Origin: a virus
IMG/VR virus record: IMGVR_UViG_3300037517_003923
Span: 1-31,978 of that record
Length of the DNA: 31,978 bases
Direction: 5' to 3' (one strand)
Under the pieces are notes generated by a model. It was not told the origin of the DNA. It ran no database searches and worked only from the letters and a program-made list of their open reading frames with translations. Positions 1-25,032 of this stretch are shown here, in pieces. The position numbers and the translations under genes are program-made. Each line of letters begins with the position of its first letter. Position 1 is the first letter of the stretch.

Positions 1-304
1 AAAATTTCTTTGTGGGATTCATAGAATCCAAAAACTCTGAAAATTTTCTTAAAGCAACTTTGGGATGAAGTCCATTATCGTTAGCGTTTTTCCAAAGATT
101 TTCGCCAACAACTTTAATAGCATCCTTATCAGCTTTTTCTGGCTTTTGCGGTTTAATTAAACAATTAAAAGACCCATTATCTATTGCAGAATAATCTGAA
201 TACTTTAAGGCCGTAGCAGAGATTTGAAGTATTTCTGCCCCAGCGTCTGGATCTAAGCCTGTAGTTTCAATATCAAAAACAATAAAGTTCTTATTATTTG
301 GCAT
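1..304 (-). CDS. DnaQ-like 3'-5' exonuclease (partial, C-terminus off window)
   Basis: Only the first 101 codons lie in the window; translation runs leftward off the edge. The start ATG (302-304) directly abuts the stop of the polymerase gene (305-307). The N-terminus reads MPNNKNFIVFDIETTGLDP, which is the ExoI motif (D-I-E-T-T-G) of DEDD-family exonucleases such as DnaQ/epsilon. It is followed by a hydrophobic stretch, EILQISA, also typical of the fold. The remaining ExoII and ExoIII motifs would lie outside the window. The placement next to a PolIII alpha gene suggests that it supplies proofreading for the phage replicase. An exonuclease of other function (RNase T or oligoribonuclease type) cannot be excluded from this fragment. 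Confidence 0.85.
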   Translation of the reverse strand, partial: MPNNKNFIVFDIETTGLDPDAGAEILQISATALKYSDYSAIDNGSFNCLIKPQKPEKADKDAIKVVGENLWKNANDNGLHPKVALRKFSEFLDSMNPTKKF

Positions 305-2158
305 TTAATTCAAAATTCCGTATTTAATATAATTAGTCTTATTATTAATCATTTTTGTAATCTGATAAATTTTTTCAAGGGCGGCAACGCCCAATATATC
401 AAATTTGACCCCGCCCAAATACTCTATATCAGATCCTTCGACGTCTATGACCATTTGGTCTAGTTTTTTTGAATATGTCATAGGAAATAATGTGCTCAAT
501 GGCTTATCGGAAACAATTATACCTGCAGCGTGTACGCTTTCATTTTTAGGAAGTTTTTCAATTTTAATGGCAAAATCAAAAGCCTCCTTATATTTTTCAT
601 AAGACTCAGCGACAGCTTTAATATTGTCTATATTCCATCTAATAATGCCGTAAGAAGGATCTTCGTCTTGAAGTTCTACTAACTCGTCTGATATTTTAGA
701 CTCATCGATGAAAAGCTTAGTTATATTATTTGCTTCTTCAAAATAATTATCTACAGGCTTTAATATTCTAAATGCCTCTTTAATTGCCCCCTTACCTTTA
801 AATCTTGAGTGAGTTATGATATGAGCTACACAATCTCTACCATACTTTTCTCTAACATAGTCTATAACTTCAGATCTTGCAGATGGAGGTAGGTCAATAT
901 CAATATCTGGCAAAGAAACATTTGTGGCTGTATTTCTTCCTTCATTATAAAATCTTTCGAAAGGAAGCTCTCTCTCTTTTGAGTAACCAATGGTTTGGTC
1001 TGGTAATATAGGATCAATACTAGATATATCTAATAGATATGAAATGAGACAGCCAGAGGAAGATCCTCTACTATCTATTGGAAGATTCTTAGATTTTGTA
1101 TGTTTAACAATATCACTGACCACTAAAAAATAACCAGAAATATTTGCTTGCTTAAACACTTCTAATTCATGCTTAATTCTATTGAGATAGACTTCTTTTA
1201 GTTCGCTATGATGTTTTATGGCTGGCACAATCTTTTTAGAAAAGCCAGTCCTACAATTTTCTCTTAAGAATTCGTCCTGACTAAGTATTTGATGGTCGTC
1301 TATCTTAAAATCAGGAAGCATAGGCCTTTCTTCAATAGAAAAGTCTTCTATCAAGTCTAGTACCTTGAATGTCTTTTCACCTTCGGGTAATTTATCTAAA
1401 ATGTGACAAATTGCGTATCTAGAATCAAATATTCTAAGATCGTCTTGCTTTTTATCATTATCTTCATCAGAAATGATTAAATCATGAATCTTAACATCTT
1501 CTTTTCTTAGGTAGTGGATGTTATTACATGGTATATAATCTTTGAAATTATTCTTAATAAACTTACCTAGAGATATTAGGGCCGGCATTTTAGAGTAGTC
1601 AAAAAATAAAAATACATCGCTGTATATGCCCCTATAAAGTTTTAAGACTTTTTCTATCTCTTCTTTTGCGTTATTTTTTAATAAAATATCGCACTCTTCT
1701 GTTGAGTCTGAATTATAAGCTAGATCTGGATTAGCAAATGAATTATTAAAAATGCTGCTTTTTAAGTCGCCAATTAGGCATATTAATCCAGAACTGAACT
1801 GCTTAAGATCTTCGTAGTAAAATTTCGGACAAGAGTCTTCTATAACCCTATTTTTAGCTCTACCAGTAGAAAGTAATTTAAGCATATTTTTATAGCCATT
1901 CTTATTTCTACAAAGTAAAGTAATTCTATCAATTTTGTTTTCTAACTGCCAAACATCTATCTCACATCCGATGATTGGCTTTATATTTTTTGCTTTGCAT
2001 TTTTTATAAAAAGGCACTAGGGCTTTAATATTATTGTGATCAGTTATAGCCGCCGCCTTGAATCCAGTGTTTGACAAATAATTTATATAGTCGTCAACAT
2101 CTAAAGTGCTATCTAGTAGCGACCATGCTGTATGAACATGTAATGGTATATAATTCAT
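305..2158 (-). CDS. dnaE: DNA polymerase III alpha subunit, N-terminal half (PHP + palm), apparently split
   Basis: A family C replicative polymerase of 617 residues. The PHP domain opens with LHVHTAWSLLD (6-16) and has AITDHNN (37-43). The palm carries RGSSSG (364-369), PDIDIDL (417-423, with D420 and D422 matching the catalytic Asp pair PDFDVDF), HAAGIIV (543-549) and KFDILG (585-590, D587 matching the third catalytic Asp). Bacterial DnaE proteins are about 1,100-1,200 residues, with fingers, beta-binding, OB and C-terminal domains after this point. Here the protein stops about 30 residues after D587. No Cys-led intein start is visible at the end. The missing half may be a separate gene left of the window, or the gene may be truncated. 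The start ATG overlaps the stop of the upstream nuclease by 4 nt. Confidence 0.93.
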   Translation of the reverse strand: MNYIPLHVHTAWSLLDSTLDVDDYINYLSNTGFKAAAITDHNNIKALVPFYKKCKAKNIKPIIGCEIDVWQLENKIDRITLLCRNKNGYKNMLKLLSTGRAKNRVIEDSCPKFYYEDLKQFSSGLICLIGDLKSSIFNNSFANPDLAYNSDSTEECDILLKNNAKEEIEKVLKLYRGIYSDVFLFFDYSKMPALISLGKFIKNNFKDYIPCNNIHYLRKEDVKIHDLIISDEDNDKKQDDLRIFDSRYAICHILDKLPEGEKTFKVLDLIEDFSIEERPMLPDFKIDDHQILSQDEFLRENCRTGFSKKIVPAIKHHSELKEVYLNRIKHELEVFKQANISGYFLVVSDIVKHTKSKNLPIDSRGSSSGCLISYLLDISSIDPILPDQTIGYSKERELPFERFYNEGRNTATNVSLPDIDIDLPPSARSEVIDYVREKYGRDCVAHIITHSRFKGKGAIKEAFRILKPVDNYFEEANNITKLFIDESKISDELVELQDEDPSYGIIRWNIDNIKAVAESYEKYKEAFDFAIKIEKLPKNESVHAAGIIVSDKPLSTLFPMTYSKKLDQMVIDVEGSDIEYLGGVKFDILGVAALEKIYQITKMINNKTNYIKYGILN

Positions 2159-3141
2159 TCGTTAAAATTATTTCTTCTGTTGGAGGTTTTTGATTCTTTT
2201 GCTATAGACTTTTCTTTTTTTACATTATTTATTTTTAATAATGTATCGTCAATACCATTTCCTACAGCGTAAGCATGTATAGTATCGCAAATGCTAGCTC
2301 CAGATTTGGTTAGAGTTTTGCCAAAATAACATGTGGATTTGCACTTCCACTTGTCAGAAGCCTTTGTCTCTTTTATTCTAGACGGCATCTGGTTCCATTT
2401 TATGGATTTGAATGTTTCTTTTAGCATTTTTTCTGTATTCTTTCGATCATTTTCATCAAAAGTAACAGTAAAAGGACCTCCATCATTTATAAAATGAATT
2501 GTTAAAATTCGATTTTTATATTGAGGAAATAGTATACTTGTAGCTAAATCGTACATCTTTAATTGTACGTCTTTTGAATATAAATATTCGTATTCTTTAA
2601 CATCTCCGGTATTCCAGCATTTTCTAGATCCAGTCTTCCAGTCCACTATCTCTAGTGTGTCGTTATCTACTTGAGTTAAAAGATCTATAGTGCCACGTAT
2701 TTCATACTGCCCTTTTTCCACAGTTCCTTTGATTATATCATAATATTCAAAAGAATAATCTTTACCAGGCATAGGTATTTTAAACTGATACTCAGTAGCT
2801 ATAACATTTAGCTTTCTAGGGTCGTAAGAAGTATTTAGTACTTTCTCTATAGTTCTTAAGCAAAATTTCTTATCGCTAGCAGTAAGAGAAAACTCTGGAG
2901 ACTCTTTAGTATATCTACCCCAGCAGATATCTAAAAGTTTTTGATGATCTGTAATAAACCCAAAGTTTCTACCAACCTTACTGCCTTTTGCCATTAATTC
3001 TAATACGTGATGTACTATCGTACCTAAAAAAGCTTTTTTACCAGCTTTAGATGGCATTTCAAGTATTTGTTCCATAAAGAATTGAAACTCGCAGCCTCTA
3101 TAAGTATTTATTGAAGAGGCTCTTAAAAATTTAAGATTCAT
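2155..3141 (-). CDS. PD-(D/E)XK nuclease, Cas4/RecB-like, with a probable Fe-S cysteine cluster
   Basis: 328 residues. The N-terminus SSINTYRGCEFQFF resembles the start of RecB/AddB/Cas4-type nuclease domains (S-x-x-x-Y-x-x-C-P-x-x-F). Further motifs are GTIVHHVLE (H44), GTIDL (D153), VDWKTG (D167, K169) and DVQLKMY (Q193), which form the PD-(D/E)XK core in the expected order. Cysteines C17, C267, C271 and C285 are arranged as in 4Fe-4S Cas4/AddB nucleases: one Cys before the core and three after it. It probably processes DNA ends in replication or recombination; its neighbours are primase, polymerase and recombinase. There are no other cas genes, so this is not a CRISPR Cas4. The C-terminal tail is lysine-rich. 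The gene overlaps both neighbours (4 nt and 11 nt). Confidence 0.85.
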   Translation of the reverse strand: MNLKFLRASSINTYRGCEFQFFMEQILEMPSKAGKKAFLGTIVHHVLELMAKGSKVGRNFGFITDHQKLLDICWGRYTKESPEFSLTASDKKFCLRTIEKVLNTSYDPRKLNVIATEYQFKIPMPGKDYSFEYYDIIKGTVEKGQYEIRGTIDLLTQVDNDTLEIVDWKTGSRKCWNTGDVKEYEYLYSKDVQLKMYDLATSILFPQYKNRILTIHFINDGGPFTVTFDENDRKNTEKMLKETFKSIKWNQMPSRIKETKASDKWKCKSTCYFGKTLTKSGASICDTIHAYAVGNGIDDTLLKINNVKKEKSIAKESKTSNRRNNFNE

Positions 3142-3562: not shown

Positions 3563-4197
3563 ATGTATCTTTTTATAATTTCATGTAACTGTTTATTTTT
3601 CTCTTCAATAGAGATTTCTTGATTATTTATAGAATATGTATTACTGCCTGAGAAATTATAATTATCTAAACCTAACTCACTCTCATGACTATGACCTAGC
3701 ACATTTCTTAAAAATCTTATTGTGACGTGATCATAGTTTTTAAAAAAATTAATCTCATTTTCAAACCTAGCGTCTGTTATTATGGCATAATCTAAATTGT
3801 CATATTTTATTTTATTATAAACAGACCTAACCCAGCAGTCCTTATCAAAGAACCTAAAAACATCAGTTCCCCATACTTGCATAACTTCCCTTGCCGTCAT
3901 AAAATCTTCCGTGCTTTTATATTTTTTGTCCCTAATCATTAGTACAGAAAGTCTTTCTTTATTTATTGGAAGATCTGACCATTTAAAATTAGTTAGAGTA
4001 TCTTTCTCTTTATTAGAACCCCAACATTGTGTTTCACTTAATCCAAAAATATTGTGACAAATATCCTTTAAAGATTCAGCAAATGAATAGCATTTAACAG
4101 TTTTATTTTTTTCAGCTAGCTTATCTATAATAAAAGCCGCAGCAGAGTCTTTACCGCTCTGCGCTTTGCCCGTCAAGATAATTATCTTTGTTTTCAT
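3559..4197 (-). CDS. Deoxynucleoside monophosphate kinase (T4 gp1-like)
   Basis: 212 residues with an N-terminal P-loop GKAQSGKDS (10-18) and the sequence features of phage dNMP kinases. These include REVMQVWGTDVFR, where family members have LLQxxGTdvxR, then CWV near the middle, AIITDARFENEI (the family has 'ITDvRFxNE') and a C-terminal HESE. The enzyme phosphorylates dNMPs to dNDPs with ATP, feeding phage DNA synthesis together with ThyX, dUTPase and NrdJ in this window. It overlaps the primase gene by 47 nt and the downstream gene by 4 nt, so it is part of the replication operon. Confidence 0.88.
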   Translation of the reverse strand: MKTKIIILTGKAQSGKDSAAAFIIDKLAEKNKTVKCYSFAESLKDICHNIFGLSETQCWGSNKEKDTLTNFKWSDLPINKERLSVLMIRDKKYKSTEDFMTAREVMQVWGTDVFRFFDKDCWVRSVYNKIKYDNLDYAIITDARFENEINFFKNYDHVTIRFLRNVLGHSHESELGLDNYNFSGSNTYSINNQEISIEEKNKQLHEIIKRYI

Positions 4198-5227
4198 ACC
4201 TTTTCCTTAAAACGCTTAATTGCGGCTTAATTTGATTTTTGTATTCATCCTCTGTAAGCTCTGCAGGATCTTTATCTTTAGGAAGCATTAATTTGACTAC
4301 GTCAATTTTACTTTGATGTAAAATCTTTGCTTTATTATAGCCTTCTTCTCCAGCCTTATCAGAATCAAATAGAACTCCTACACATTTTGCGCCAAATTTA
4401 ATTAAAGAAGATATCTGCGCATTTGATACACTGCAACCATAACTTGCTACGCAGTTTTTGACGCCAAATTCCCACATTCGCCATAGATCATATGGACCCT
4501 CCACGAGAACCGCAAAACCCACCCTTTCTATCCAATGCTTGGCCTCGTGTGAATTATATAACTCAATACTCTTATTGAGGCCTTTTGGGTAGTGTCTCCA
4601 TTTAGAATACATTTTTATATATGGAGAGCTTTTATTTAACCAAGAAGGTATAAAAAATCCAGTCTCGCTGCACTTTTTATATATACTTCTACCGGAAAAT
4701 CCTATTAGTTGCCCCTCTTCATTTCTAAGAGGTATCATCACCCTGTGATGTTGAGGCATTACGTTTTTATCGTTAACTATTCCACAATTAAAATGATTGA
4801 TTGTATCTGTCTTAAATTTTTTGCTTGGTATATTATCTAAAGCCTTTAATTTCTTAATATTGGATTCGCTTATAACCGAATTATTCAGTTTTACATTATC
4901 CCTTTTTTCTTTTGGTATATATCCGCAATTAATTTCAGGAGAATTTATTACATTACCTATCCACTCAACAGCCTCAGAAAATGTCATGTTCTTTATTGAT
5001 CGAACAAGACCTATTATATCATTTCCATATTTTTTATGACACTGGTGAGTAAAACAAGACCAGCAGTTCTTAGATCTGTCATAAGAAAAAGCAGCATTAT
5101 TGTCTCCGTTATGGACAGGACAATTTTGCTGTACCCCTCTTTCTGATATAAATTGAAAACCCAAGCTCTTTAAGATTAGCTCATCATAAGACTCTGCAAG
5201 TTTTTTAATTTCAGAAGTCGAGTTCAT
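4151..5227 (-). CDS. dnaG: DNA primase, DnaG type (zinc finger + TOPRIM)
   Basis: 358 residues. The N-terminal zinc-binding domain has C36-x2-H39 and C55-x2-C58, equivalent to CPFH...CFGC of DnaG, with the following IIGLVRSIKNMTFSEAVEWI helix region that is standard after this finger. A basic catalytic segment (HRVMIPLRNEEGQLIGFSGR, 161-180) precedes the TOPRIM domain: LVEGPYD (E243) and FDSDKAG (D288, D290), which bind the catalytic metal. It is shorter than bacterial DnaG (about 580-600) because the helicase-binding C-terminal domain is missing or very small. It synthesises RNA primers and pairs with the DnaB-type helicase immediately upstream (17-nt overlap). Confidence 0.95.
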   Translation of the reverse strand: MNSTSEIKKLAESYDELILKSLGFQFISERGVQQNCPVHNGDNNAAFSYDRSKNCWSCFTHQCHKKYGNDIIGLVRSIKNMTFSEAVEWIGNVINSPEINCGYIPKEKRDNVKLNNSVISESNIKKLKALDNIPSKKFKTDTINHFNCGIVNDKNVMPQHHRVMIPLRNEEGQLIGFSGRSIYKKCSETGFFIPSWLNKSSPYIKMYSKWRHYPKGLNKSIELYNSHEAKHWIERVGFAVLVEGPYDLWRMWEFGVKNCVASYGCSVSNAQISSLIKFGAKCVGVLFDSDKAGEEGYNKAKILHQSKIDVVKLMLPKDKDPAELTEDEYKNQIKPQLSVLRKRYENKDNYLDGQSAER

Positions 5228-6659
5228 CGTTTGAGTCTATTGTTGAAGCGTTATCTAATACTTCAAAGTTAAATCTTCCTTCTACCATTTCTGATCTATC
5301 CATATTAGAGATGATATTAATATACTCAGAAGAAGAATCCATACCCTTTCCATATCTCGTTTCAACTACGATTAACTTCCTGTCTCCATTTGATTTGCTG
5401 TCTCCAGCAGCGAAATCTTCGTCGGTTTTCTTCTTTAAAAAAGCTAAGCTAGAGCATAGCCATAAAATTCTATCACTTCCTGAAACTACGCTAGTATCAT
5501 CTTTATTTATTCCATCTCTATTTAACTGTACGGTGGCTAAAATAGGGGCGTCATGCTTTACAGCAAAATTATGCAACTTTGTTATAAAGTCACCTAAATA
5601 TTGGTATTCTTGAAAATTTCCAAGATCTCCAAGGTCCATAGTTTTTAGATAATCTAAAATTATTAAACAGTCTTTTGTTGAACCGTTTGCATTTTTGCCA
5701 ACGTGCTTGGAAAGCCATTGTCTGCATATGGAAAAAATTTCTTCTTGCGACATTCCAGCGACACTTACGTGATAGAATGGCTTTGAAGACATTTCCTGAA
5801 TTTTGTCTTGAATAATTAAGGAGTCTCTTTCGCTGTTACCGAAAGCTCCTGTTTCAATAATTGATTGACTTATTCCCGAGCAAAGAGAGGCCCATTTAAT
5901 GGCCTGTATTTCTTTCTTCATTTCTGTGTCTAAATATAGAACTGGAACTTCGCTCAGCGCCACATTCTTGGCGACGTTCAGGCAAAATGTACTTTTACCT
6001 ACTTTTGGTCTAGCTCCTACTACATTAACTGTACCTCTTCTATACCCTCCGCCTACACATTGATCGTATCTAGTATAGCCTGTAGGAATACCCGCTAAAG
6101 TTACGGGATTGTCAGACAGATATTTAATGTGCGATATAGCGTACTGCGCTAAATTAGTGATATCGTTTTCTTTTTTAATCTCTGGAATAAGACTTGTAAT
6201 AGTCTCTTCGACGCTAGAGATCAAACTAATAATATTTTCTTCTTTTGAAGCTAGACTTATCTTTTTCTTAGCTTCTTCAATCTTTATATTAAGCTTCTTT
6301 AATACAAAATATTTTTTTATTTCTTTTAGATTTATCTTCGCCTCATCTTTAGAGACATTCAAACCCATGGCTAATTCTATTGTTGGCGAATATTTTTTAT
6401 TGATTTTATCTTGAGGTATGCCATTAGTTTTAGCAAAAGAATAAATCATCTCACTTGTTATGGTATCTACATTTTCACTTTTATATAGATCACAAACAAA
6501 TGAGTATATACTAGCGTTCTCTTCTTTAGAAAAGTGGTCCTTAGAAAGCGAATCTAAATCGGTAAAGAAATTTATAGATCCGCATTTAAATGCATAAGAC
6601 AATATTGACAACTCAGGATCATGAAGAGGTTCTGCATCTGTTGCATTTAAGTTTTGCAT
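5211..6659 (-). CDS. dnaB: Replicative DNA helicase, DnaB family
   Basis: 482 residues. An N-terminal DnaB-like helical domain (DPELSILSYAF onward) is followed by a linker and a RecA-like ATPase. GIPTGYTRYDQCVGGG leads into Walker A GARPKVGKST (215-224). Next come LYLDTEM (241-247), Walker B CLIILDYLKTMD (331-342) and ATVQLNRDG (375-383, the DnaB 'SQLNR' sensor region). The length is typical for DnaB. As a hexamer it would unwind the fork ahead of the phage PolIII-type replicase and recruit the neighbouring primase. The start ATG has an AGGT ribosome binding site 4-5 nt upstream, inside the 3' end of the preceding gene (41-nt overlap). Confidence 0.95.
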   Translation of the reverse strand: MQNLNATDAEPLHDPELSILSYAFKCGSINFFTDLDSLSKDHFSKEENASIYSFVCDLYKSENVDTITSEMIYSFAKTNGIPQDKINKKYSPTIELAMGLNVSKDEAKINLKEIKKYFVLKKLNIKIEEAKKKISLASKEENIISLISSVEETITSLIPEIKKENDITNLAQYAISHIKYLSDNPVTLAGIPTGYTRYDQCVGGGYRRGTVNVVGARPKVGKSTFCLNVAKNVALSEVPVLYLDTEMKKEIQAIKWASLCSGISQSIIETGAFGNSERDSLIIQDKIQEMSSKPFYHVSVAGMSQEEIFSICRQWLSKHVGKNANGSTKDCLIILDYLKTMDLGDLGNFQEYQYLGDFITKLHNFAVKHDAPILATVQLNRDGINKDDTSVVSGSDRILWLCSSLAFLKKKTDEDFAAGDSKSNGDRKLIVVETRYGKGMDSSSEYINIISNMDRSEMVEGRFNFEVLDNASTIDSNDELDF

Positions 6660-7131: not shown

Positions 7132-7597
7132 TATTATACCTTCTATCTGCAGCCAAAGCTTTGATTGAATTAGCCATAAATTCTATTTTTCTATCTATGT
7201 CTTCAATTTGATTTGCTGTTATATTTAAATTGACTTTGACAGATTCTAACTCTTTCGCAACAGGATCATTTCTTTTTATTACAAGAGATTTTTCACTTAA
7301 TCCATAACCGCTAGTATTAGGTAGCTCTCTACCTATAATAGAGCTTATGTTTGCGTCACACCAATTAATTATAGACTTTAGTTTATTAATCTTAGACTTT
7401 ATGTAAATAGAGTATTGTGATAATTTTATAGCGTTTATCAACAAGTCTTCACTAGTTTGAGCTTTTAATTCGCTGTGATTTAGATTTAATATTTTTACAA
7501 TTTCATCTGGCTCTTTTATGTTTAAAATATCAGCAGATTGTAACTCTGCTATTTTATCTAGTATTTTACTTTTTGAGGATTGTGATATCTCAGACAT
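7121..7597 (-). CDS. Unknown helical protein in replication operon
   Basis: 158 residues, not recognised. It is predicted to be mainly alpha-helical. A C-terminal stretch (roughly 105-150) has heptad-like spacing of hydrophobics (LESVKVNLNITANQIEDIDR and on), suggesting a coiled coil. One Cys occurs at INWCDANI. There are no catalytic motifs. It overlaps its neighbours by 11 nt and 8 nt, so it belongs to the replication transcription unit. A structural or scaffold role in the replisome is possible but unsupported. Confidence 0.7.
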   Translation of the reverse strand: MSEISQSSKSKILDKIAELQSADILNIKEPDEIVKILNLNHSELKAQTSEDLLINAIKLSQYSIYIKSKINKLKSIINWCDANISSIIGRELPNTSGYGLSEKSLVIKRNDPVAKELESVKVNLNITANQIEDIDRKIEFMANSIKALAADRRYNNER

Positions 7598-7988
7598 TTA
7601 AAATCTTTTTTACATCATTTGAACTTCTTACTTCGTGAAGTCTTATATTGTTTAACTCACAGAAAAAACGCTTATTTTCATCTCTAGTTTTTTGATCTTC
7701 AAATTCGGCTAGGCTTTTGTGAAAAAATGGATTCATTTTGTCATGCTGTTCGCCTTGAACCTCAAAAGCAATTTTTCTGTTTGGAAGAAAAAAATCTAAA
7801 GACAGTCTTGTATCTGGTATTGTGATATCCTCAAGAATTGGGTCTAAAGGATATCTTGATTTAATGATCTGACCTATTTCGTATTGTATATTTGAACGAC
7901 AAGCGGCCTTATTTTTCAAAGGCCAGCTACTTTGTCTCACATCCCATGTCACTGAAGTATTAGGATTATCTATAGATTTTACCTTCAT
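7590..7988 (-). CDS. Small PD-(D/E)XK endonuclease, Vsr/DUF559-like
   Basis: 132 residues. The core LSLDFFLPNRKIAFEVQGEQ (63-82 region) contains D65 and E76-x-Q78 followed by GEQH. The sequence QKTRDENKRFFCELNNIRLHEVR follows. This is the pattern of Vsr-, DUF559- and EDxHD-type nucleases: an Asp on the first strand, E-x-Q/K on the second, then a D/R helix and a final strand. Such proteins act as nicking, junction-resolving or homing endonucleases. The location between RecA-like recombinase and helicase favours a recombination or repair role over homing. The gene starts with an ATGA overlap and has a basic N-terminus. Catalytic specificity cannot be told from sequence. Confidence 0.78.
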   Translation of the reverse strand: MKVKSIDNPNTSVTWDVRQSSWPLKNKAACRSNIQYEIGQIIKSRYPLDPILEDITIPDTRLSLDFFLPNRKIAFEVQGEQHDKMNPFFHKSLAEFEDQKTRDENKRFFCELNNIRLHEVRSSNDVKKILNV

Positions 7989-8317: not shown

Positions 8318-9289
8318 TTATATAGCCATTGTTCTTATTTGATCGTAAATTTCTTTGCTTAACACTTGGTTTTTTCTCAAATGCTCTATGACATTCATTT
8401 GTCCTTGAAGCTTTTCCTTGTTTCCTGGAACTGTGTACCATGCTCCAGATTTTGATATGATACCAAATTCACAAGCTAGATTGAAAAGATCCATTGTTTC
8501 ATCAACGCCCTTTCCATATATTATAGGTATGGATACATCGGCACCAGGTGAACCAAGTGCTGAAGCGACTATATAAAAATGAGCGTTTTGACCTATAGTT
8601 TTGTTGTTTGTATCTTCTATATCCTGTTTCCATCCACCCTCAAGCCAAACAGACGCGCCATATTGAGGAGCGTTTCCTCCTACCCCATAACTCTTTTTAC
8701 CAGGTCCAGGGTTAGGATTAGCAATCATATGAGTAAGCGCTATGAAGGTGCTTTTTGTGACAGGCAGTATTTGACTTACTCGTCTAAACATTTTATACAT
8801 TAGACTAGCTGTTCCAGCCATTTTAACACCATCACCTATATTTGATGAAAGCTCTGCTTCAGGACATAGGGCCGCGATAGAATCTAGAATGCAAATGCAC
8901 TTGGGATAATCCTTTAGTGTGGTGTAAAGAAGATTCAGAAAGTCTTCCGCACTGAGTATCTTATTTTCATTTGATCTAACTATCGCAATATTTTCTCTAT
9001 TTAGATCCGGAAAGCAATCTAAAAGCTCTGTTCTAAGACGCCCCTCAACATCAAAAAAGAAAGCCTTTTTAGTCGGGTCTTCTCTATGGCACTGTTGCAC
9101 GTAATGTAAAGCTAAAGTTGTTTTTCCAACCTTAGGTTTACCACTCATTAAAACACTAGAGCCTTCAGGAATACCTCCAGAAAGAGCTATGTCTAGAGAA
9201 AGAGTAGTTTTAAAAGTTCTACCCTGCTCCTCTTTGAGTGCCGTTACTGGGATTAAAAAATTCTCTAATGAAATATCTGATTTACTCAT
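8318..9289 (-). CDS. RecA/UvsX-like homologous recombinase
   Basis: 323 residues. It has a Walker A GKPKVGKTT (50-58) after LSGGIPEGSSVLMSG, an acidic strand FFFDVEG (77-82) where RecA has the conserved Glu, Walker B CICILDSIAAL (130-140), and THMIANPNPGPGKKSYGVGG, which matches the RecA/UvsX L2 region and the motif after it. The C-terminal segment IISKSGAWYTVPGNKEKLQGQ is a well-known RecA/UvsX signature. It forms filaments on ssDNA for strand exchange and recombination-dependent replication. It is slightly shorter than E. coli RecA (353) and near phage UvsX size. It overlaps the upstream gene by 4 nt. Confidence 0.94.
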   Translation of the reverse strand: MSKSDISLENFLIPVTALKEEQGRTFKTTLSLDIALSGGIPEGSSVLMSGKPKVGKTTLALHYVQQCHREDPTKKAFFFDVEGRLRTELLDCFPDLNRENIAIVRSNENKILSAEDFLNLLYTTLKDYPKCICILDSIAALCPEAELSSNIGDGVKMAGTASLMYKMFRRVSQILPVTKSTFIALTHMIANPNPGPGKKSYGVGGNAPQYGASVWLEGGWKQDIEDTNNKTIGQNAHFYIVASALGSPGADVSIPIIYGKGVDETMDLFNLACEFGIISKSGAWYTVPGNKEKLQGQMNVIEHLRKNQVLSKEIYDQIRTMAI

Positions 9290-9747
9290 ATCAAATCTTT
9301 TTCTTTGGTTTCTCTCTTGAAGATAATAGCATCTGGAACTTCAACAGTTTTAGATTTTGATTTTTTACTGTCGATTAAGTCTATTTCATTTTGAAAAATA
9401 TTATACAGTAAACTTTTCTGTTTTTCTAGTGGTAGATATATCAGAGTGATAATACCTTTATCTTTAACATAAGATATAACCGTCTCCACACTGAAAACTT
9501 TTAGAAGTCTTTTAACATAAGTAATTTCTAGAGAGAAATCTTTTGCTAGCTCTTTTAGTTCTGGATTTGCTAAAAGAACATCCTTCCTCCAAAACGGAAC
9601 TAGAGGCTTGGAAATCTTTTCGCCTTTCTTGATTTTGAAAGCAATTTTATTTTCTAAAATAAGCTCTGTTATGTAAGCTTCTATTGGAATCTTTAGCTTT
9701 GGGACAAAGTTTGAGTCCCAATCTTTGGTATTAGTAGATCTGCGCAT
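9286..9747 (-). CDS. Unknown basic protein
   Basis: 153 residues, lysine-rich, not recognised. The segment ELAKDFSLEITYVKRLLKVF could form a helix-turn-helix-like element, but this is weak. The chosen start overlaps the upstream gene by 55 nt and has only a poor ribosome binding site. No better in-frame start is visible nearby, so expression may depend on translational coupling. It is adjacent to recA (4-nt overlap). Confidence 0.65.
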   Translation of the reverse strand: MRRSTNTKDWDSNFVPKLKIPIEAYITELILENKIAFKIKKGEKISKPLVPFWRKDVLLANPELKELAKDFSLEITYVKRLLKVFSVETVISYVKDKGIITLIYLPLEKQKSLLYNIFQNEIDLIDSKKSKSKTVEVPDAIIFKRETKEKDLI

Positions 9748-10139
9748 TTTTCTAAATTTCTTTGTTCGGATTCTATAAGGTTAAGATCTCTATCAAACCA
9801 ACTGATTTGAACTAAATTTATTTCTTGATCATAGAAACCTATACCAAAAGCTTCATGACTATTATGATCACCTAGGTTTATCGCTAGCTTCTTAGAAAAG
9901 AAGAAGTTACTAGATCCTTTTGTTTCTATAGAAACTTTTTTATACCCAGAACCATTTGCGTTGTCTTTTTTAAACAATTTTATTGATACTGGATTAATTT
10001 TAAGATCGCAAACTTCTTGCTGAACCTTAAACCATTCTGATATTTCTCCTGGCTGTTGTGTCTGGTCTAAAGCAATCAGACCATTATCAAATAAAATTCC
10101 CCAGAAGATTTCTAGCGCCTTGTCTGGGTTTCCATTCAT
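9693..10139 (-). CDS. Unknown protein
   Basis: 148 residues. The sequence alternates predicted beta strands (VSIKLFKKD, KKVSIETKG, AFGIGFYDQEINLVQISWFD) and may be a small beta-rich domain. No catalytic motif is seen. It begins with an ATGA overlap with the upstream gene and runs 55 nt into the downstream one. Function unknown. Confidence 0.68.
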   Translation of the reverse strand: MNGNPDKALEIFWGILFDNGLIALDQTQQPGEISEWFKVQQEVCDLKINPVSIKLFKKDNANGSGYKKVSIETKGSSNFFFSKKLAINLGDHNSHEAFGIGFYDQEINLVQISWFDRDLNLIESEQRNLEKCADLLIPKIGTQTLSQS

Positions 10140-10381
10140 TTAGAAAATCCTCGAACAGAGTCAGCTTTTTCTGACTGACCTTTAGTTCTAACAACAGAAG
10201 TTAGAATCTGACCACCAGTTGAAGCTATATAGCCTTTCTTTTCTGGGATCGGAGGATTATAGAAATTATCTAAAGCATTATTAATAATATTTGAGACAGA
10301 TAAAACATCATCATCGTCGCAAATTTCAGATACGCTTTTTTTAATTTGTCTTTTTAATTTATTTAAATTTGTCTTGTTCAT
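10136..10381 (-). CDS. Small unknown protein
   Basis: 81 residues. An N-terminal basic helix (MNKTNLNKLKRQIKKSVSEI) is followed by an acidic patch (CDDDD) and a Gly/Thr/Arg-containing C-terminus. No family is recognised. It lies one base after the upstream stop and overlaps the next start as ATGA. Confidence 0.65.
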   Translation of the reverse strand: MNKTNLNKLKRQIKKSVSEICDDDDVLSVSNIINNALDNFYNPPIPEKKGYIASTGGQILTSVVRTKGQSEKADSVRGFSK

Positions 10382-10382
10382 A

Positions 10383-10721
10383 TCATCTCTTATAATAAAT
10401 TTGAGCTTTAGTGAGTAAATAACTATTTCTATCTCTTAAGTAGCTTACATAGTTATCGTAACAGTCTTTATTTACTTCTTCAAATAAGAACTCGTTTTCT
10501 ACTCTTGTTTGATTCTTTTCGTCAATTTTATCAACTATTGGATTATAGAGTCTTCTTTGTCTTTTTGATGCTAGTACGTAGAATTTAACGCCAGAAGATA
10601 TATGTACAGACTTAGCTGCAGCATTCGTATTATCTGTTGACTCTTTGCCTGAATTAGAGGTATACCATGTGCTGATATTATTGTCTTCTTTTATTTGTTT
10701 TGCGTTTTTAATAAATTTCAT
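10383..10721 (-). CDS. Small unknown protein
   Basis: 112 residues, with basic and tyrosine-rich segments (KFYVLASKRQRRLYNPIVDK and a tyrosine-rich C-terminus). No domain is recognised. It overlaps the upstream gene by 4 nt, placing it within the run of small accessory proteins between the recombinase and the nucleotide-metabolism genes. Confidence 0.65.
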   Translation of the reverse strand: MKFIKNAKQIKEDNNISTWYTSNSGKESTDNTNAAAKSVHISSGVKFYVLASKRQRRLYNPIVDKIDEKNQTRVENEFLFEEVNKDCYDNYVSYLRDRNSYLLTKAQIYYKR

Positions 10722-14226: not shown

Positions 14227-15225
14227 TTAAGCGCTGTTTGCCAAAGACTTTTTATATTCATTCATTATAGAATTTGCAAAAATATCAACACTATTTTTTA
14301 GGTACATTTCATAATTTTTAAGACCTATCTTTTGTCTTTCAGCTTTAGTCTTGTTAATAAGATTTTCTGTCTTTGCTATCATGTCACCAAAATCGTCTGC
14401 TAGCCAATCTTCAGAATCGAAAAGTTCTTTTACTGCATCAAGCTTATACGATATAACTGGTTTTTTTGCGGCCATAGCTTCTAGCGCTGAAAAACAAAAA
14501 ACTTCTGAAGAGGTAGGGTAGTGCCATATATCGCACTCTTCTATAATTTTTTTAACAGCAAGATCATCCATATTATGGTAAATTTTTACGTTATCAAGAT
14601 GTTGATTTTTTTTAAACGATAGCAGGTATTGATAGTAAGATAAATCCTGAATCTCTCCACCAACATTAAAGCTATTATTTTTAAAAATCTCTGCGACCTT
14701 AAATGTATGATCTATAAGTTTTGAACTACAAAAAGCAGAAATTCTAGATAATATTGGAATCTTATTTTGTTCTGATTCTTTAAAATCATAATTAAATGAC
14801 GGCCTTATTATTAGAGAGTTTTCAAATTTGCCGCTTATAGCTTGTCCAAACTTAGACAAAAAGAAAATTTTATCAAAAATTGATGGGTCAAAACCAATTT
14901 TTTGGTTGCAAAGAACAGTTATAAATTTTTTTGATTTTGCAGGAAGATTGTAAAAGTATGTTGGATTTTGTGAACCAGGTATAAAAATATGGATTATATC
15001 AGGACTAAAGTGGCTTATACTTTCTAGAATTTCATTTTTATAATCAAAGTTTTTAGATTCGAGCAAAAAAGTCTTACCTATTTCTTGAAACTTTTCTCTG
15101 TATATACCGTCCCAAAAACCATAAAATTGCATTTCATTGTCTTTTGAAAATTTTTGAGCCAAAGCAAAAGCCGTTTTTGTAGATCCACCTGGATTATAAA
15201 AGTTGTTAATAAATGCTATTTTCAT
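14227..15225 (-). CDS. GT-B glycosyltransferase, family 4-like
   Basis: 332 residues. The N-terminus MKIAFINNFYNPGGSTKTAF is the GT-B/GT4 opening with the glycine-rich loop that contacts the acceptor or donor. The C-terminal half contains EVFCFSALEAMAAKKPVISY and LDAVKELF, equivalent to the E-x7-E nucleotide-sugar-binding motif region (PSxxEGFGxxxLEAMAxGxPVV). It transfers a sugar from a nucleotide donor; the acceptor (virion protein, DNA or cell-surface glycan) is unknown. It is transcribed divergently from the plus-strand cassette across a 29-base gap holding a palindromic TATAAATTTATA. Confidence 0.9.
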   Translation of the reverse strand: MKIAFINNFYNPGGSTKTAFALAQKFSKDNEMQFYGFWDGIYREKFQEIGKTFLLESKNFDYKNEILESISHFSPDIIHIFIPGSQNPTYFYNLPAKSKKFITVLCNQKIGFDPSIFDKIFFLSKFGQAISGKFENSLIIRPSFNYDFKESEQNKIPILSRISAFCSSKLIDHTFKVAEIFKNNSFNVGGEIQDLSYYQYLLSFKKNQHLDNVKIYHNMDDLAVKKIIEECDIWHYPTSSEVFCFSALEAMAAKKPVISYKLDAVKELFDSEDWLADDFGDMIAKTENLINKTKAERQKIGLKNYEMYLKNSVDIFANSIMNEYKKSLANSA

Positions 15226-15232
15226 ATGTGTA

Positions 15233-15244
15233 TATAAATTTATA
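15233..15244. promoter_or_regulatory. Palindromic divergent promoter TATAAATTTATA
   Basis: A perfect 12-bp palindrome centred in the 29-base gap between two divergent genes (ATG at 15223-15225 on minus, ATG at 15255 on plus). Each strand reads TATAAATT, near the T4-type late core TATAAATA. On minus it is preceded by C (CTATAAAT), as in several other boxes here. A start site 5-6 bases downstream would give leaders of about 6-9 bases in both directions. It could serve as one bidirectional late promoter recognised by the phage sigma factor, but it might be only an AT-rich spacer. Confidence 0.45.
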
Positions 15245-15254
15245 GGTAATTATA

Positions 15255-16472
15255 ATGAGATTTAAGGCATTACTAAATAAAATAGCGAAAGCAGCTTATC
15301 AGCCGTATCCATGTACTCCTGGAAAAGATTGTCCTCAAGATGTAATGCAATCCGAAAATCCTGGCGCTATCCAAAATCCTTCTAGTTACATACCAGACAT
15401 AGTGAATAACGCACTTCGGGAAGACTGCGAATTATGCAAAAAAGGATGCTGCGGGTTTGAATATTTGGTGCTTAAAGAAATCAATATTAACAATCTGTCT
15501 ACTATAGCTTCAGAAGAAGGTATTGAGACTCCATTTTTTAAGCAAATAGACGGTACACTTCATATTCATAACGGAGTTAAAAACTATAGAATAGACCCCG
15601 TTATAACTTTAGCCTACAAAAGAAAGGCTTGTGTAAGTGCCACTAGAAGTCATTGCGATTTATTACAAGCCAAACTAAAATCAACTCCTGCCCTTAGTGG
15701 CAATGTTAGCAATAAACCTTGCAGAGAACGAATTGATTTTAGTAAAAACAGTTTCACGTTTCAGGAAAGTCCTTGCGAAAGTGAACAAGGTTGTGGCGCA
15801 GGATATGTACCACAAATTGCCCCTAGTGGAGAAGGCCATATATTCCGTATTAAGGTTAAAGGCTTACGTACCGATGGTGGGTATAATATAATAGCCCCTT
15901 TTGAGATGCCTGGGGCTAACCAACAATTTAAAAATCAGTTAATTGCTCTTATGTTAGGATCCTGTAGATCAGTTTCTACAGAGCAGCTGACAAACATAAC
16001 TGAAGCCACGGAGCTAGAAGACAGACTTGAATTCGCATCTAACGTTACACTATTTGCTGCTTCGTGGGTATTACCTGGATTGGCAGGTAGGGCAGCTGCT
16101 GCAGCGCTGTTAAAAGGCGTGCCAAGAGCTAGTCGGTTGCGACCTATCGTAGAAGGTACAACGTGTGCAATAGCTAAAGCGCCATGGTATTTGAAGGAGG
16201 CAGCCACATTTGGAGCCTTGTATGCAGCTGGACCTGTAATTCCTGATGCGGTTGATCTTGTGCGTTGGATGCAATTAGAAGATTCAGGGTATGCACTATT
16301 CAGAAACAAACGTAAATATGTAATACAAGACAGTCAAGGTCAGGATTATAATCTTGAGAGTAATGGAAATGCTTGTGTTATACAGCTAAATGAAGCTCAG
16401 GAGATGGAGGATACTCTTGACATTTTAGATACACCACGACAGATTTTAGAAAATTTAGAACAGGGTTATTGA
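15255..16472 (+). CDS. Unknown cysteine-rich protein with two hydrophobic segments (plus-strand cassette, first gene)
   Basis: 405 residues, no family recognised. A basic amphipathic N-terminal helix (MRFKALLNKIAKAAYQ) is followed by a cysteine-rich region with about 11 of the 14 cysteines before residue 185. This includes C58-x2-C61-x3-C65-C66, a possible metal-binding knuckle. Two long hydrophobic, Ala/Gly-rich segments (about 264-289 and 314-337) could be membrane-inserted helices. There is no classical cleavable signal peptide, although the N-terminus is positively charged. It is one of only two genes on the plus strand in the window and sits 6 nt before its partner. The similar N-terminal helix in both proteins suggests a shared targeting signal. 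A virion-packaged or membrane-active effector is possible but unproven. Confidence 0.8.
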   Translation: MRFKALLNKIAKAAYQPYPCTPGKDCPQDVMQSENPGAIQNPSSYIPDIVNNALREDCELCKKGCCGFEYLVLKEININNLSTIASEEGIETPFFKQIDGTLHIHNGVKNYRIDPVITLAYKRKACVSATRSHCDLLQAKLKSTPALSGNVSNKPCRERIDFSKNSFTFQESPCESEQGCGAGYVPQIAPSGEGHIFRIKVKGLRTDGGYNIIAPFEMPGANQQFKNQLIALMLGSCRSVSTEQLTNITEATELEDRLEFASNVTLFAASWVLPGLAGRAAAAALLKGVPRASRLRPIVEGTTCAIAKAPWYLKEAATFGALYAAGPVIPDAVDLVRWMQLEDSGYALFRNKRKYVIQDSQGQDYNLESNGNACVIQLNEAQEMEDTLDILDTPRQILENLEQGY

Positions 16473-16478
16473 AATAAA

Positions 16479-17588
16479 ATGAACAATTTAAAAAACATCC
16501 TATATCGTTTGAAATTCGCTTACAGAACTTTAGGAAGCGCTGATGAAATGGGAGTCCGTCCAGGTCAGATTCAGGGAATTGGAGGATGGCAAAATGATCC
16601 GATGTTTAAAGATTTAGGACTTTGGGTTGCTGATAAGTTTTTACAACACCATGGGTCAGGATCTAATACTCCGATAAGACTAGACCGACTCATGAATGAT
16701 GCGACTATAATTTTCCCAGATTTAGATAATCCAGATGATATTGAAGAGTATGTGGATTGGGTTAAAAATATTAGCACTTGCTATAAAAATCCTGGTGAAG
16801 GAAATGCCACAGAAGTTATATTTGGTTATGAGGGCACTAAGTTTTGGATGTGTCTGAATGGTTTGATGATTGACGCATCGTGCGCCGCATTAGAGAGAAA
16901 TGAAGTACCTATACCATTACCACAAGGTAGAGATGCAGCTTCAGCAGAATTATTAAGATCATCTTCTGGAATCCAAGCAAGCAGTCCTTATACAACAGAC
17001 GATTTTCTTGGAAAGAGTATCGCACAAATAAGAGCAATGATTTGTCAAATGCATTTTAATCTTTCTGACGGTAAACCTTGGAGTCAAGCTTCCGAAGAAG
17101 AAAAGCAGGACGCAAGATATAGCTTTGTTCAATATTGGCTAAATGCCATTGTCAATCATATTGAGAGTCATTTTACAGGATTAAAACTCAAGGAGATGGG
17201 TTATTACAATGGACCAGGTGTTACGTCACAAAATATAGTTTTACAAGTCTTGGAAAGAGGCGGAATAGCTTGTGTAGCAGTGGCGCAAGGTATTATCGCA
17301 AGCTGGGTCAATTTGCCACCTACAATCATTAATAGCCTTGAAGCGTTTCAATATAGAAGAGTCAGGCAGCTTTTAAGAATGCAGGCTCTTATGTATTTTA
17401 CGCTTTTATTGAATTCTAATGTTTGCAATGAACTTTCAGGAGAAGAAAGAGTTAAATGCAGATGTGGAATAAAAAAGAAACCAGCTCCTCCGCCGCAGCC
17501 GCGGCCAGAAGTTGACACGGGAATTGGGTTTAGTCCATTTGGTATAGCTTATAATGAGACTGACGAAGTATTAAACAAGCCTGTTTGA
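16479..17588 (+). CDS. Unknown protein (plus-strand cassette, second gene)
   Basis: 369 residues, no family recognised. The N-terminus MNNLKNILYRLKFAYRTLG resembles that of the upstream partner (hydrophobic/basic pattern ending in AY plus basic or Gln). The middle is helical, with a cluster MICQMHFNLSDGKPWSQASE, and includes hydrophobic helices near GIACVAVAQGIIASWVNLPP and LMYFTLLLN. After a cysteine cluster (CNELSGEERVKCRCG) comes a proline-rich linker, KKKPAPPPQPRPEV, and a short tail. It is co-oriented with the preceding gene at 6-nt spacing and converges on a minus-strand glycosyltransferase 24 nt away. No terminator hairpin is visible in that gap. Confidence 0.8.
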   Translation: MNNLKNILYRLKFAYRTLGSADEMGVRPGQIQGIGGWQNDPMFKDLGLWVADKFLQHHGSGSNTPIRLDRLMNDATIIFPDLDNPDDIEEYVDWVKNISTCYKNPGEGNATEVIFGYEGTKFWMCLNGLMIDASCAALERNEVPIPLPQGRDAASAELLRSSSGIQASSPYTTDDFLGKSIAQIRAMICQMHFNLSDGKPWSQASEEEKQDARYSFVQYWLNAIVNHIESHFTGLKLKEMGYYNGPGVTSQNIVLQVLERGGIACVAVAQGIIASWVNLPPTIINSLEAFQYRRVRQLLRMQALMYFTLLLNSNVCNELSGEERVKCRCGIKKKPAPPPQPRPEVDTGIGFSPFGIAYNETDEVLNKPV

Positions 17589-17612
17589 AGAAAAGAATAA
17601 ATTATAAATTAC

Positions 17613-18206
17613 TTATCTCAAAACTCTAGAATAGTTCTGCAAATGATAAACAAAAGATTTTACTTTTAAAAATTTAAAACCCATCATTGGTAGGATTTCA
17701 TCAAGCAGAGTTATATCATTTGGGTGTGGAAACTTTACTGTATTGGGGTAAGGTATAAAGGTGTCTTTATTAAATGATATCGGCATATACCACCCTTTGC
17801 AGTTTTCTTTGAATTCTGGAATAACAGAACTAGTAGCGTCACACCACTGTTGGAATTCATTTTTCCTGAAAGTTTCAGGACTAATACCAAAGTCTAGCAT
17901 TATATTTTTATTTGAAACAGGAATTACTCCAGGCTCTACTAAATAGCCTGTGCATATTGTTTTATCCTTTGTATACTTAATATAATACTCGTCCCAATTT
18001 TTACTTACAAACATGTCGTCATTCATTAGAACAACAGTATTTGTTGAAGCTTTGGCGACTCCAGTATTATAAGCATCATAAACATCATTAGAATCAATTA
18101 TTTCTATCAACTCATAGCTATGCTTAGTGTTTTCTTTCAAAATATCTTTGCATAAATTTATGCAAGAACTTTTACTCAAATACGGTATTACAATTGAGAA
18201 ATCCAT
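17613..18206 (-). CDS. GT-A (family 2-like) glycosyltransferase
   Basis: 197 residues. The N-terminus MDFSIVIPYLSKSSCINLCK is the GT2 opening (x-S-I-V-I-P-x-Y). The line VAKASTNTVVLMNDDMFVSKNWDEYY contains the NDDM variant of the DxD metal/nucleotide-sugar motif followed by the usual aromatic helix. It is short for the family, with a minimal GT-A core. It is the last of six consecutive glycan genes, directly abutting the methyltransferase gene at 18207. The product is unknown: the island may modify host surface glycans or phage virion proteins. Confidence 0.82.
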   Translation of the reverse strand: MDFSIVIPYLSKSSCINLCKDILKENTKHSYELIEIIDSNDVYDAYNTGVAKASTNTVVLMNDDMFVSKNWDEYYIKYTKDKTICTGYLVEPGVIPVSNKNIMLDFGISPETFRKNEFQQWCDATSSVIPEFKENCKGWYMPISFNKDTFIPYPNTVKFPHPNDITLLDEILPMMGFKFLKVKSFVYHLQNYSRVLR

Positions 18207-18728
18207 TTATCTTTTTACTCCTATAAATCTGATATCGTTTATTGGAGTTAAATAATCTATAACAACTCTTTTAAAGGTTTTTTCTAAGTCAAAAATATCT
18301 GTCAATTGTTTTATATGTATATTGCCGTAATAGTCTAAGGTATGTGGAGAAGCGAATCCTGAAGAGCGACTAGTTCCATGCTCTGCTCGCTCATATCCTC
18401 CAGCAGTGAATACTAAAAGACCATTAGGTTTTAAAAGATCGACTATTTTGAGTAAAGACTCTTTATAGAACTTGTCGTGTTCTAACATTTCTGTACTTAT
18501 AATTGTATCAAAAATAAAGCCTGGATTGTATTCGTGAACAGGACATACAATATCTACATTCTTACCAGGACCTATATCTAAACCGATATAATTGCAATTC
18601 TCAAACAATACTTTATTTGAGCCATTTATATCTTGACTACCTACGTCAAGAACTGTTTTATTTACAAAATAATCTGGATAAAGTTGCTTTGCGTATAAAC
18701 AAAATTCTACTTGTTCTCTGTGAGACAT
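18207..18728 (-). CDS. Class I SAM-dependent methyltransferase
   Basis: 173 residues. Motif I VLDVGSQDINGSN (a variant of VLDxGxGxG), motif II YIGLDIGPGKNVD with acidic D for the SAM ribose, then DTIISTEMLEHDKFYKESL and LLKPNGLLVFTAGGYE follow the Methyltransf_11 layout. A Gly/Ser-rich loop (GTSRSSGFASPHTLDYYG) is typical of small-molecule or sugar methyltransferases in glycan clusters. The likely role is capping or modifying a sugar made by the neighbouring glycosyltransferases. The ribosome binding site is not strong and the gene abuts its neighbours closely. Confidence 0.87.
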   Translation of the reverse strand: MSHREQVEFCLYAKQLYPDYFVNKTVLDVGSQDINGSNKVLFENCNYIGLDIGPGKNVDIVCPVHEYNPGFIFDTIISTEMLEHDKFYKESLLKIVDLLKPNGLLVFTAGGYERAEHGTSRSSGFASPHTLDYYGNIHIKQLTDIFDLEKTFKRVVIDYLTPINDIRFIGVKR

Positions 18729-18731
18729 ATT

Positions 18732-19322
18732 TTATTCCTTTATGAAAGAACCCCAAAACACACTTAAAAAGTCATCATACATGAATTTTTTTAATTTATT
18801 TTCAGATAGTAAATTTTCAACTTGAGAATAAGAAGCTTCTGGCAATTTAAAACCATCTAAAATATTATATTTTGATTTAATATCATTCCACTTATCTAAT
18901 TCATTTGGAGAATCTACATAGTCATGCATCATTATAACATCGTTCTTTTTAAGAAGTTTTGAATATATTTTAAATTCATCGATTTTATTTCCTCCGTCAC
19001 ATAAAAATAATACTCTTCCTTTTTGTGAAATCATTTCAGATAATTCAGAAATAGATTCATTAGAAAAGCAATCTGAAATTCTAATGCATTTATATGCAGG
19101 ATTTTCTAAAGGTATCTTAATAATAGAATCATTTATTTCATATGTAATGAACTTACAATCTTCCTTTTTATTATTATTTAGCCATATAGCAAAACCTCCC
19201 GTATAAGTCCCTATTTCTATGATTAAATCAAAATCTTTAATTATCTTATTAAAAATTTCTACTGTTCTTGGTACTTGTGCAGCTAGGATGTTTTCGACCC
19301 AAATAAAAGATTGAGAAATCAT
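18732..19322 (-). CDS. SAM-dependent methyltransferase (Methyltransf_24/CmcI-like)
   Basis: 196 residues. The motif FDLIIEIGTYTGGFAIWL is the glycine-rich SAM loop of the CmcI/Methyltransf_24 type, where E-I-G-T-Y-x-G-G is usual. FITYEIND gives the acidic residue after the second strand. GRVLFLCDGGNKIDEFKIY and NDVIMMHDYVD match the family 'DGGHxxxxxxxD...HDY' pattern, with GGN replacing GGH. It probably methylates a sugar or a related small acceptor. The stop is followed by AAGGAATAAAAT before the next ATG, a good ribosome binding site for the downstream methyltransferase. Confidence 0.83.
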   Translation of the reverse strand: MISQSFIWVENILAAQVPRTVEIFNKIIKDFDLIIEIGTYTGGFAIWLNNNKKEDCKFITYEINDSIIKIPLENPAYKCIRISDCFSNESISELSEMISQKGRVLFLCDGGNKIDEFKIYSKLLKKNDVIMMHDYVDSPNELDKWNDIKSKYNILDGFKLPEASYSQVENLLSENKLKKFMYDDFLSVFWGSFIKE

Positions 19323-24802: not shown

Positions 24803-25032
24803 AAGGTTTTCTCCATTGGAGTTTGATTGCCTTCGATAATATAATGAGCTAAAATAGACCCTTCAATATCATCGTCTATCCAATGAACTTTTGGCATACC
24901 TCTATAGGTATAACCTTCAGTTAAACGATGCGTAGAACTGACAGCAATTACCCTCTCGTTTGGATCTGATGCCAAACAAGCGTAGTAATTAAAACCATTT
25001 CTATTTGCTTTGGATAATATTTTTATGAACAT
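24799..25032 (-). CDS. Small unknown protein
   Basis: 77 residues. It contains YYACLASDPNERVIAVSSTH and MPKVHWIDDDIEGSILAHYI and is predicted mixed beta/alpha. No family is recognised. It is coupled to both neighbours by short overlaps (10 nt and 4 nt). Confidence 0.65.
   Translation of the reverse strand: MFIKILSKANRNGFNYYACLASDPNERVIAVSSTHRLTEGYTYRGMPKVHWIDDDIEGSILAHYIIEGNQTPMEKTF

What the first reader, a model, noticed from the sequence alone, without database searches (positions are those of the whole stretch)
305..2158. Replicative polymerase alpha subunit ends just after its third catalytic Asp
The 617-residue protein has PHP, palm and all three catalytic Asp motifs (D420, D422, D587) but stops about 30 residues later, without fingers, beta-binding or OB regions. 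The next gene leftward is a DnaQ-like exonuclease. Either the polymerase is split into two genes, with the exonuclease inserted between the halves, or it is a truncated, possibly non-functional relic. I see no intein N-terminus (Cys) or intron features at the break. Knowledge used: DnaE domain order. The second half would lie outside the window.
Basis: partly seen in the sequence, partly recalled or inferred. Interest (0 to 1): 0.75.

Follow-up and report, generated by a model that had tools for sequence, protein, structure and literature searches.

The report
Phage DNA polymerase split in two
A group of environmental phages makes its main DNA-copying enzyme as two separate proteins, cut at the border between the palm and fingers domains and with the proofreading-enzyme gene between them, so this essential machine must be put together from pieces.

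Summary
The 617-aa protein is the front half (PHP, palm, thumb; all catalytic Asp) of a DnaE-type Pol III alpha. The window ends inside the next gene. Two independent assemblies of the same virus continue past it: a complete DnaQ-like exonuclease (216 aa), then a 509-aa protein holding exactly the missing half (fingers, HhH, OB), then SSB. Structure matches place the break at E. coli residue 579/583. The arrangement is old and stable: 79 distinct sequence pairs (7 from the window's clade, 72 from a sister clade about 35% identical), all broken 20-34 residues after the third Asp, with the exonuclease between the halves. Both halves are under strong purifying selection. In 23 records up to 223 kb there is exactly one palm half, one fingers half, and no PolA or PolB. 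No intein or known intron lies at the break. A cultured phage (Rossellomorea phiT1) has the same break. Best explanation: a two-subunit replicase that reassembles without covalent joining. Split phage polymerases are known (T4-type 43A/43B; a minimal split Pol III alpha in jumbo phages), so this is a new variant of a known kind. Reassembly and activity were not tested.

The parts
305..2158 (-). N-terminal half of a DnaE-type DNA polymerase III alpha (617 aa): PHP, palm and thumb, with catalytic D418, D420, D587; ends at the palm/fingers boundary
   Evidence: AlphaFold2 model mean pLDDT 85.5 aligns to E. coli DnaE 2hnh residues 4-579, Z 32.3.
2..304 (-). DnaQ-like 3'-5' exonuclease, first 101 of 216 aa; its ATG follows the polymerase stop directly (TAAATG). 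Runs off the window
   Evidence: Pfam RNase_T; complete gene at L002 7855-8505; TAAATG junction.
1..1 (-). Direction in which the C-terminal half lies, outside the window. In L002 (same virus) it is at 8519-10048: 509 aa with fingers, HhH and OB fold, followed by SSB at 10089-10517
   Evidence: model mean pLDDT 90.1 aligns to E. coli DnaE 583-1073 and Thermus DnaE 642-1121.
2155..3141 (-). PD-(D/E)XK exonuclease, same operon, overlaps the polymerase start by 4 bases
   Evidence: Pfam PDDEXK_1.
4151..5227 (-). DNA primase (DnaG-like, Toprim)
5211..6659 (-). DnaB-like replicative helicase

Best explanation
This is the palm-bearing subunit of a genuinely split replicative DNA polymerase (DnaE type). 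The phage encodes alpha as two polypeptides: an N-half (PHP, palm, thumb, all three catalytic Asp) and a C-half (fingers, HhH, OB), with the proofreading exonuclease gene between them. SHOWN by sequence: both halves exist in the same virus, the break falls at the palm/fingers boundary, nothing essential to the catalytic core is missing, the arrangement is conserved in two deep phage clades, and no other replicative polymerase was found. INFERRED: the halves are made from one early replication operon (in the window's virus), fold separately, and dock non-covalently to rebuild the active site. The fingers subunit brings the nucleotide and template contacts to the palm subunit, and the exonuclease binds the PHP domain as epsilon does in bacteria. 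No splicing step is needed.
For: C-half found directly downstream in two independent assemblies, with Pfam finger, HHH_6 and a weak sub-cut-off OB match. N-half ends at PHROG 405 position 619 and C-half starts at 625. Models align to E. coli DnaE 4-579 and 583-1073. All viral loci of the clade with both halves in view have them separate, with a DnaQ-like exonuclease between (79 distinct N+C pairs). N stops 20-34 residues after the third Asp in all of 98 loci. pN 0.05-0.24 against pS 0.60-0.87 in both halves. The two split clades form one group, support 100, while bacterial and most phage DnaE are fused. Each of 23 records up to 223 kb has exactly one palm match and one finger match, and no PolA or PolB. 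Cultured phage phiT1 carries the same break with no other polymerase annotated. Precedent: split 43A/43B of Aeromonas phage 25 co-purify and have polymerase activity (PMC2988022).
Against: No biochemical or expression evidence. The N/C interface was not modelled, as only single chains could be predicted. The records are fragments, and divergent polymerases below the Pfam cut-offs would be missed. Correlated N and C distances (r 0.97) show co-inheritance, not binding.
Confidence: 0.87

Rival explanations
1. The halves are joined after all, by RNA trans- or cis-splicing, a cryptic split intein, or stop-codon readthrough and frameshifting, giving one full-length alpha.
For: Phage DnaE genes of this very clade do carry inteins: L048 and L050 have a split intein plus a free-standing endonuclease inside the N-half, and L044 has an intein in the C-half. 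In the window the exonuclease follows the polymerase stop in the same frame (TAAATG).
Against: No intein motif at the ends of the N-half or the start of the C-half in the loci inspected. No Rfam match, so no known intron, in nine loci. In relatives the halves lie 5-9 kb apart with genes on both strands between. The inteins that exist sit inside the halves, not at the break.
Confidence: 0.06
2. A decaying relic: the polymerase gene was broken and the phage now relies on the host replicase.
For: The protein is truncated relative to bacterial DnaE and was seen alone at the window's edge.
Against: Strong purifying selection on both halves and on the exonuclease; invariant catalytic Asp in 53 N-halves; the break is conserved across two deep clades; complete replication operon around it.
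Confidence: 0.03
3. The N- and C-halves have taken on separate jobs (for example a PHP/palm protein for repair and a DNA-binding fingers/OB protein) and do not form one polymerase.
For: In some relatives the genes are 5-9 kb apart or more, so they need not be expressed in step. Iyer et al. 2021 describe a reduced split Pol III alpha beside a family B polymerase (PMC7824862).
Against: No other replicative polymerase in 23 records, always exactly one of each half; full catalytic residues; both halves co-inherited with parallel divergence.
Confidence: 0.04

Closest known systems
Split gene 43 (43A/43B, family B DNA polymerase) of T4-related Aeromonas phages 25 and 44RR (PMC2988022, citing Petrov et al. 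2010)
   Same: A phage replicative polymerase encoded as two polypeptides without an intein; the halves co-purify and are active.
   Different: Unrelated polymerase family (B, not C). There the break holds a seg endonuclease or an untranslated spacer in a few phages; here it holds the proofreading exonuclease and is fixed across a deep clade.
Minimal split Pol III alpha of group 2.2 jumbo phages (Iyer et al. 2021, PMC7824862)
   Same: A C-family polymerase split into two phage proteins predicted to reassemble.
   Different: That version lacks the other Pol III domains, is divided between NTP-binding and Mg/template-binding parts, and accompanies a family B polymerase. Here PHP, HhH and OB domains are kept, the break is at palm/fingers, and no other polymerase is found.
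Split DnaE of Rossellomorea phage phiT1 (PV767480.1, gp20 and gp18)
   Same: DnaE broken at the same palm/fingers boundary in a cultured phage.
   Different: A 49-aa ORF, not an exonuclease, lies between. The tree places it apart from the window's clade, though a single clade is not rejected (AU p 0.185).
Split-intein DnaE of cyanobacteria (Caspi et al. 2003, cited in PMC3919608)
   Same: DnaE encoded by two genes.
   Different: Those halves carry intein parts and are ligated; here no intein lies at the break. From memory, the cyanobacterial break also lies further downstream, inside the fingers.
Other DnaE breaks in cultured phages: Rhodococcus phage Grayson, Bacillus phages vB_BpsS-140 and Jayan, Mycobacterium phage Riparian
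   Same: DnaE homology spread over two or more ORFs.
   Different: The breaks lie near the PHP/palm border or inside the palm, not at palm/fingers.
'Fractured genes' (Dassa et al. 2009; read only as cited, paper not held)
   Same: Relatives L048 and L050 have exactly this kind of locus inside the N-half: split intein plus a free-standing endonuclease.
   Different: The palm/fingers break itself has no intein and no endonuclease in the window.

Membership tests
DnaE-type DNA polymerase III alpha (family C) | PHP domain followed by a Pol beta-like palm and thumb | tested here: met
   Pfam PHP and DNA_pol3_alpha; model aligns to E. coli DnaE 4-579, Z 32.3.
DnaE-type DNA polymerase III alpha (family C) | Three catalytic aspartates | tested here: met
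   D418, D420, D587 align with Taq D463, D465, D618 and are invariant in 53 N-halves.
DnaE-type DNA polymerase III alpha (family C) | Fingers, HhH and OB domains C-terminal to the palm (DnaE order, OB after HhH) | tested here: met
   Present on a separate polypeptide (L002 8519-10048): DNA_pol3_finger, HHH_6 and a weak, sub-cut-off OB match; model aligns to E. coli DnaE 583-1073.
DnaE-type DNA polymerase III alpha (family C) | Single continuous polypeptide | tested here: not met
   Two ORFs separated by the exonuclease gene.
DnaE-type DNA polymerase III alpha (family C) | Clamp-binding motif and tau-binding C-terminal domain | tested here: inconclusive
   C-half ends with the OB fold; no match beyond E. 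coli 1073. No clear clamp motif seen by eye; not tested by a motif search.
Split-intein DnaE | Intein N- and C-parts at the break | tested here: not met
   N-half ends ...INNKTNYIKYGILN; C-half starts MFTTSDISLKNEKAW, fingers sequence from the outset.
Two-polypeptide phage polymerase (43A/43B type) | Both parts encoded in the same genome with break in the polymerase core and nothing essential lost | tested here: met
Two-polypeptide phage polymerase (43A/43B type) | Parts co-purify and have polymerase activity together | not testable with these tools
   Needs expression and assay.
Minimal split Pol III alpha of jumbo phages | Lacks PHP and accessory domains and accompanies a family B polymerase | tested here: not met
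   PHP, HhH and OB present; no DNA_pol_B match in 23 records.

The most novel reading that the evidence does not exclude
In these phages the Pol III core is an obligate assembly of separately encoded parts (palm subunit, exonuclease, fingers subunit, and in the sister clade a conserved 58-aa orphan protein as a possible clasp), in which palm and fingers can separate and exchange, and the fixed gene order N-exonuclease-C serves ordered, matched synthesis.
Probability: 0.15. Interest if true: 0.8.

Novelty: new variant of a known kind. Interest (0 to 1): 0.62.

Why it matters
Replicative polymerases are among the most constrained enzymes, and DnaE is nearly always one chain. A natural, old and stable split at the palm/fingers border, with the proofreader gene kept between the halves, shows that the core can be built from two subunits over long evolutionary time without protein splicing. 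It gives a ready natural split site for studying how fingers closing drives catalysis, and for making split or inducible C-family polymerases. It also warns annotators: these halves look like truncated genes and are easily discarded as relics or assembly errors.

Tried and rejected
Assembly error or frameshift at the break: rejected, same stop in two independent assemblies and a matching break in all relatives. Truncated relic: rejected, purifying selection and a complete partner gene. Intein at the break: none seen in the loci inspected; inteins occur only elsewhere, in L048, L050 and L044. Group I/II introns: no Rfam match in nine loci. A second polymerase elsewhere: no PolA, PolB or second DnaE in 23 records. 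Homing endonuclease as the cause of the break: an HNH gene sits between N-half and exonuclease in L026/L028, but most loci have none, so the cause is unknown. Independent origin of the phiT1 break: favoured by the tree, not proven (AU p 0.185). An RNA element between N-half and exonuclease in the sister clade: the spacer turned out to encode a conserved 58-aa ORF. dN/dS within the window's clade could not be computed because synonymous sites are saturated; pN and pS are given instead. Papers: no description of this split was found in ten searches of an open-access library; Dassa et al. 2009 and Petrov et al. 2010 could not be read directly.

Full report
What is in the window. ORF 305-2158 on the minus strand encodes 617 aa. 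Pfam sees a PHP domain and the Pol III alpha palm/thumb region and nothing else. PHROG 405, a whole phage Pol III alpha of 1190 positions, is matched only from 42 to 619. Alignment to Thermus DnaE puts the catalytic aspartates at D418, D420 and D587 (Taq D463, D465, D618). The stop codon is followed at once by the ATG of a DnaQ-like exonuclease (TAAATG), which the window edge cuts after 101 codons. Upstream in the same direction lie a PD-(D/E)XK exonuclease, a primase and a DnaB-like helicase. The window is an IMG/VR fragment of 31,978 bases.

Where the other half is. A viral scan found the same virus in two other assemblies, L002 and L005. They differ from the window by 3 and 18 bases over 3141 and have the same stop. 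Downstream of the N-half both have the full 216-aa exonuclease, then 13 bases, then a 509-aa ORF, then SSB. The 509-aa protein has the DNA_pol3_finger domain, HHH_6 and a weak OB match, and matches PHROG 405 from position 625. The two proteins therefore tile one DnaE with a gap of five profile positions. AlphaFold2 models of each half alone are confident (mean pLDDT 85.5 and 90.1). They align to E. coli DnaE residues 4-579 and 583-1073 and to Thermus DnaE 5-644 and 642-1121. The break is thus at the palm/fingers boundary, and the two proteins together cover E. coli DnaE to about residue 1073, that is, all but its far C-terminal region.

How widespread it is. Scans with alignments of the N-halves and C-halves, followed by ORF classification, gave 98 loci in which both halves are complete, or 79 distinct nucleotide pairs: 7 from the window's clade and 72 from a sister clade about 35% identical. 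In every locus with both halves in view they are separate ORFs, and a DnaQ-like exonuclease lies between them (the one row marked otherwise, L007, is a reversed locus that the script misread). The N-half always ends 20-34 residues after the third Asp. In the window's relatives L003/L011, L004/L012, L013, L039 and L065 the halves are 5-7 kb apart, and about 9 kb in L180, but the exonuclease stays upstream of the C-half. Of 80 bacterial DnaE loci, 78 are single ORFs carrying both parts; the two others are a contig end (L167) and a break elsewhere (L140). Distant phage relatives are fused too. In the tree the two split clades form one group with support 100, which suggests one old split.

Evidence that it works. 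Between relatives pN is 0.05-0.24 while pS is 0.60-0.87 in both halves and in the exonuclease. N and C distances are parallel (r 0.97), as expected for co-inheritance. Twenty-three records, up to 223 kb, each have exactly one palm match and one fingers match and no family A or family B polymerase. A cultured phage, Rossellomorea phiT1, has DnaE broken at the same boundary as gp20 and gp18, with a 49-aa ORF between and no other polymerase annotated in the 50 of 52.8 kb viewed. The literature gives a precedent: split 43A/43B of Aeromonas phage 25 co-purify and have polymerase activity, and a split nrdA is fully functional (PMC2988022).

Joining mechanisms considered. No intein sequence is present at the break in the loci inspected, and nine loci have no Rfam match. 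Inteins do occur in this polymerase family but inside the halves: a split intein with a free-standing endonuclease at RG/C-SAAG in the N-half of L048 and L050, and an intein at RPG/C in the C-half of L044. In the relatives with halves kilobases apart, genes on both strands lie between, which excludes simple cis-splicing. Non-covalent reassembly is therefore the best explanation; it is inferred, not shown.

Novelty. Split phage replicases are known in family B (43A/43B), and a reduced split Pol III alpha beside a family B enzyme was described in jumbo phages (PMC7824862). What appears new is a DnaE with PHP, HhH and OB domains, apparently the sole polymerase, split at palm/fingers throughout a deep phage clade with the proofreader gene fixed between the halves. 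Ten literature searches found no description, but only open-access papers were searchable.

Open points. Why the exonuclease sits between the halves is unknown; it may be the inserted gene that caused the split, or it may be kept there for matched expression. The sister clade also has a conserved 58-aa orphan ORF between N-half and exonuclease in 76 of 82 loci and a C-half N-terminal extension with a CGC motif. Either could help the halves dock; neither was tested.

Noticed in passing
Sister-clade loci, e.g. L016 8411-8590, L212, L217, between the N-half and the exonuclease: Conserved ~58-aa ORF (pattern F.EL.VG..F..N..EY.K....R.SCCK) with no Pfam or PHROG match, present in 76 of 82 loci and absent from the window's clade; possible extra polymerase subunit.
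   Followed up: partly
L048 7713-10843; L050 814-3916: The N-half is itself broken inside the conserved RG(S/C)-SAAG motif by a split intein with a free-standing endonuclease gene between the intein parts: a 'fractured gene'.
   Followed up: partly
L044 17008-19533: The fingers half carries an in-frame intein, with an HNH-like region seen by eye, at RPG/CLEA.
   Followed up: partly
L026 2124-2810 (also L028, L245): HNH endonuclease gene inserted between the N-half and the exonuclease.
   Followed up: partly
Sister-clade C-halves, e.g. L016 9275-9360: N-terminal extension with a conserved Y.CGC.F motif, absent from the window's clade; looks like part of a zinc site.
   Followed up: no
L258 5210-5359 (phage phiT1): 49-aa ORF of unknown function between the two halves of the split DnaE of a cultured phage.
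   Followed up: partly
window 25026-25676: P-loop ATPase with a weak match to a terminase family; large records of the window's clade gave no Terminase_6N match, so the packaging enzyme may be divergent.
   Followed up: partly
window 29751-31976: Long collagen-like [13 protein letters not shown] repeat protein, probably a fibre; the + strand repeat ORF 31151-31861 is its shadow.
   Followed up: no
window 7590-7988: Homing/HNH-endonuclease-like ORF between replication genes.
   Followed up: no
L002 10653-13447: Glycosyltransferase genes next to the replication operon; by eye, further ones lie at window 14227-21490, perhaps for DNA or capsid glycosylation.
   Followed up: no
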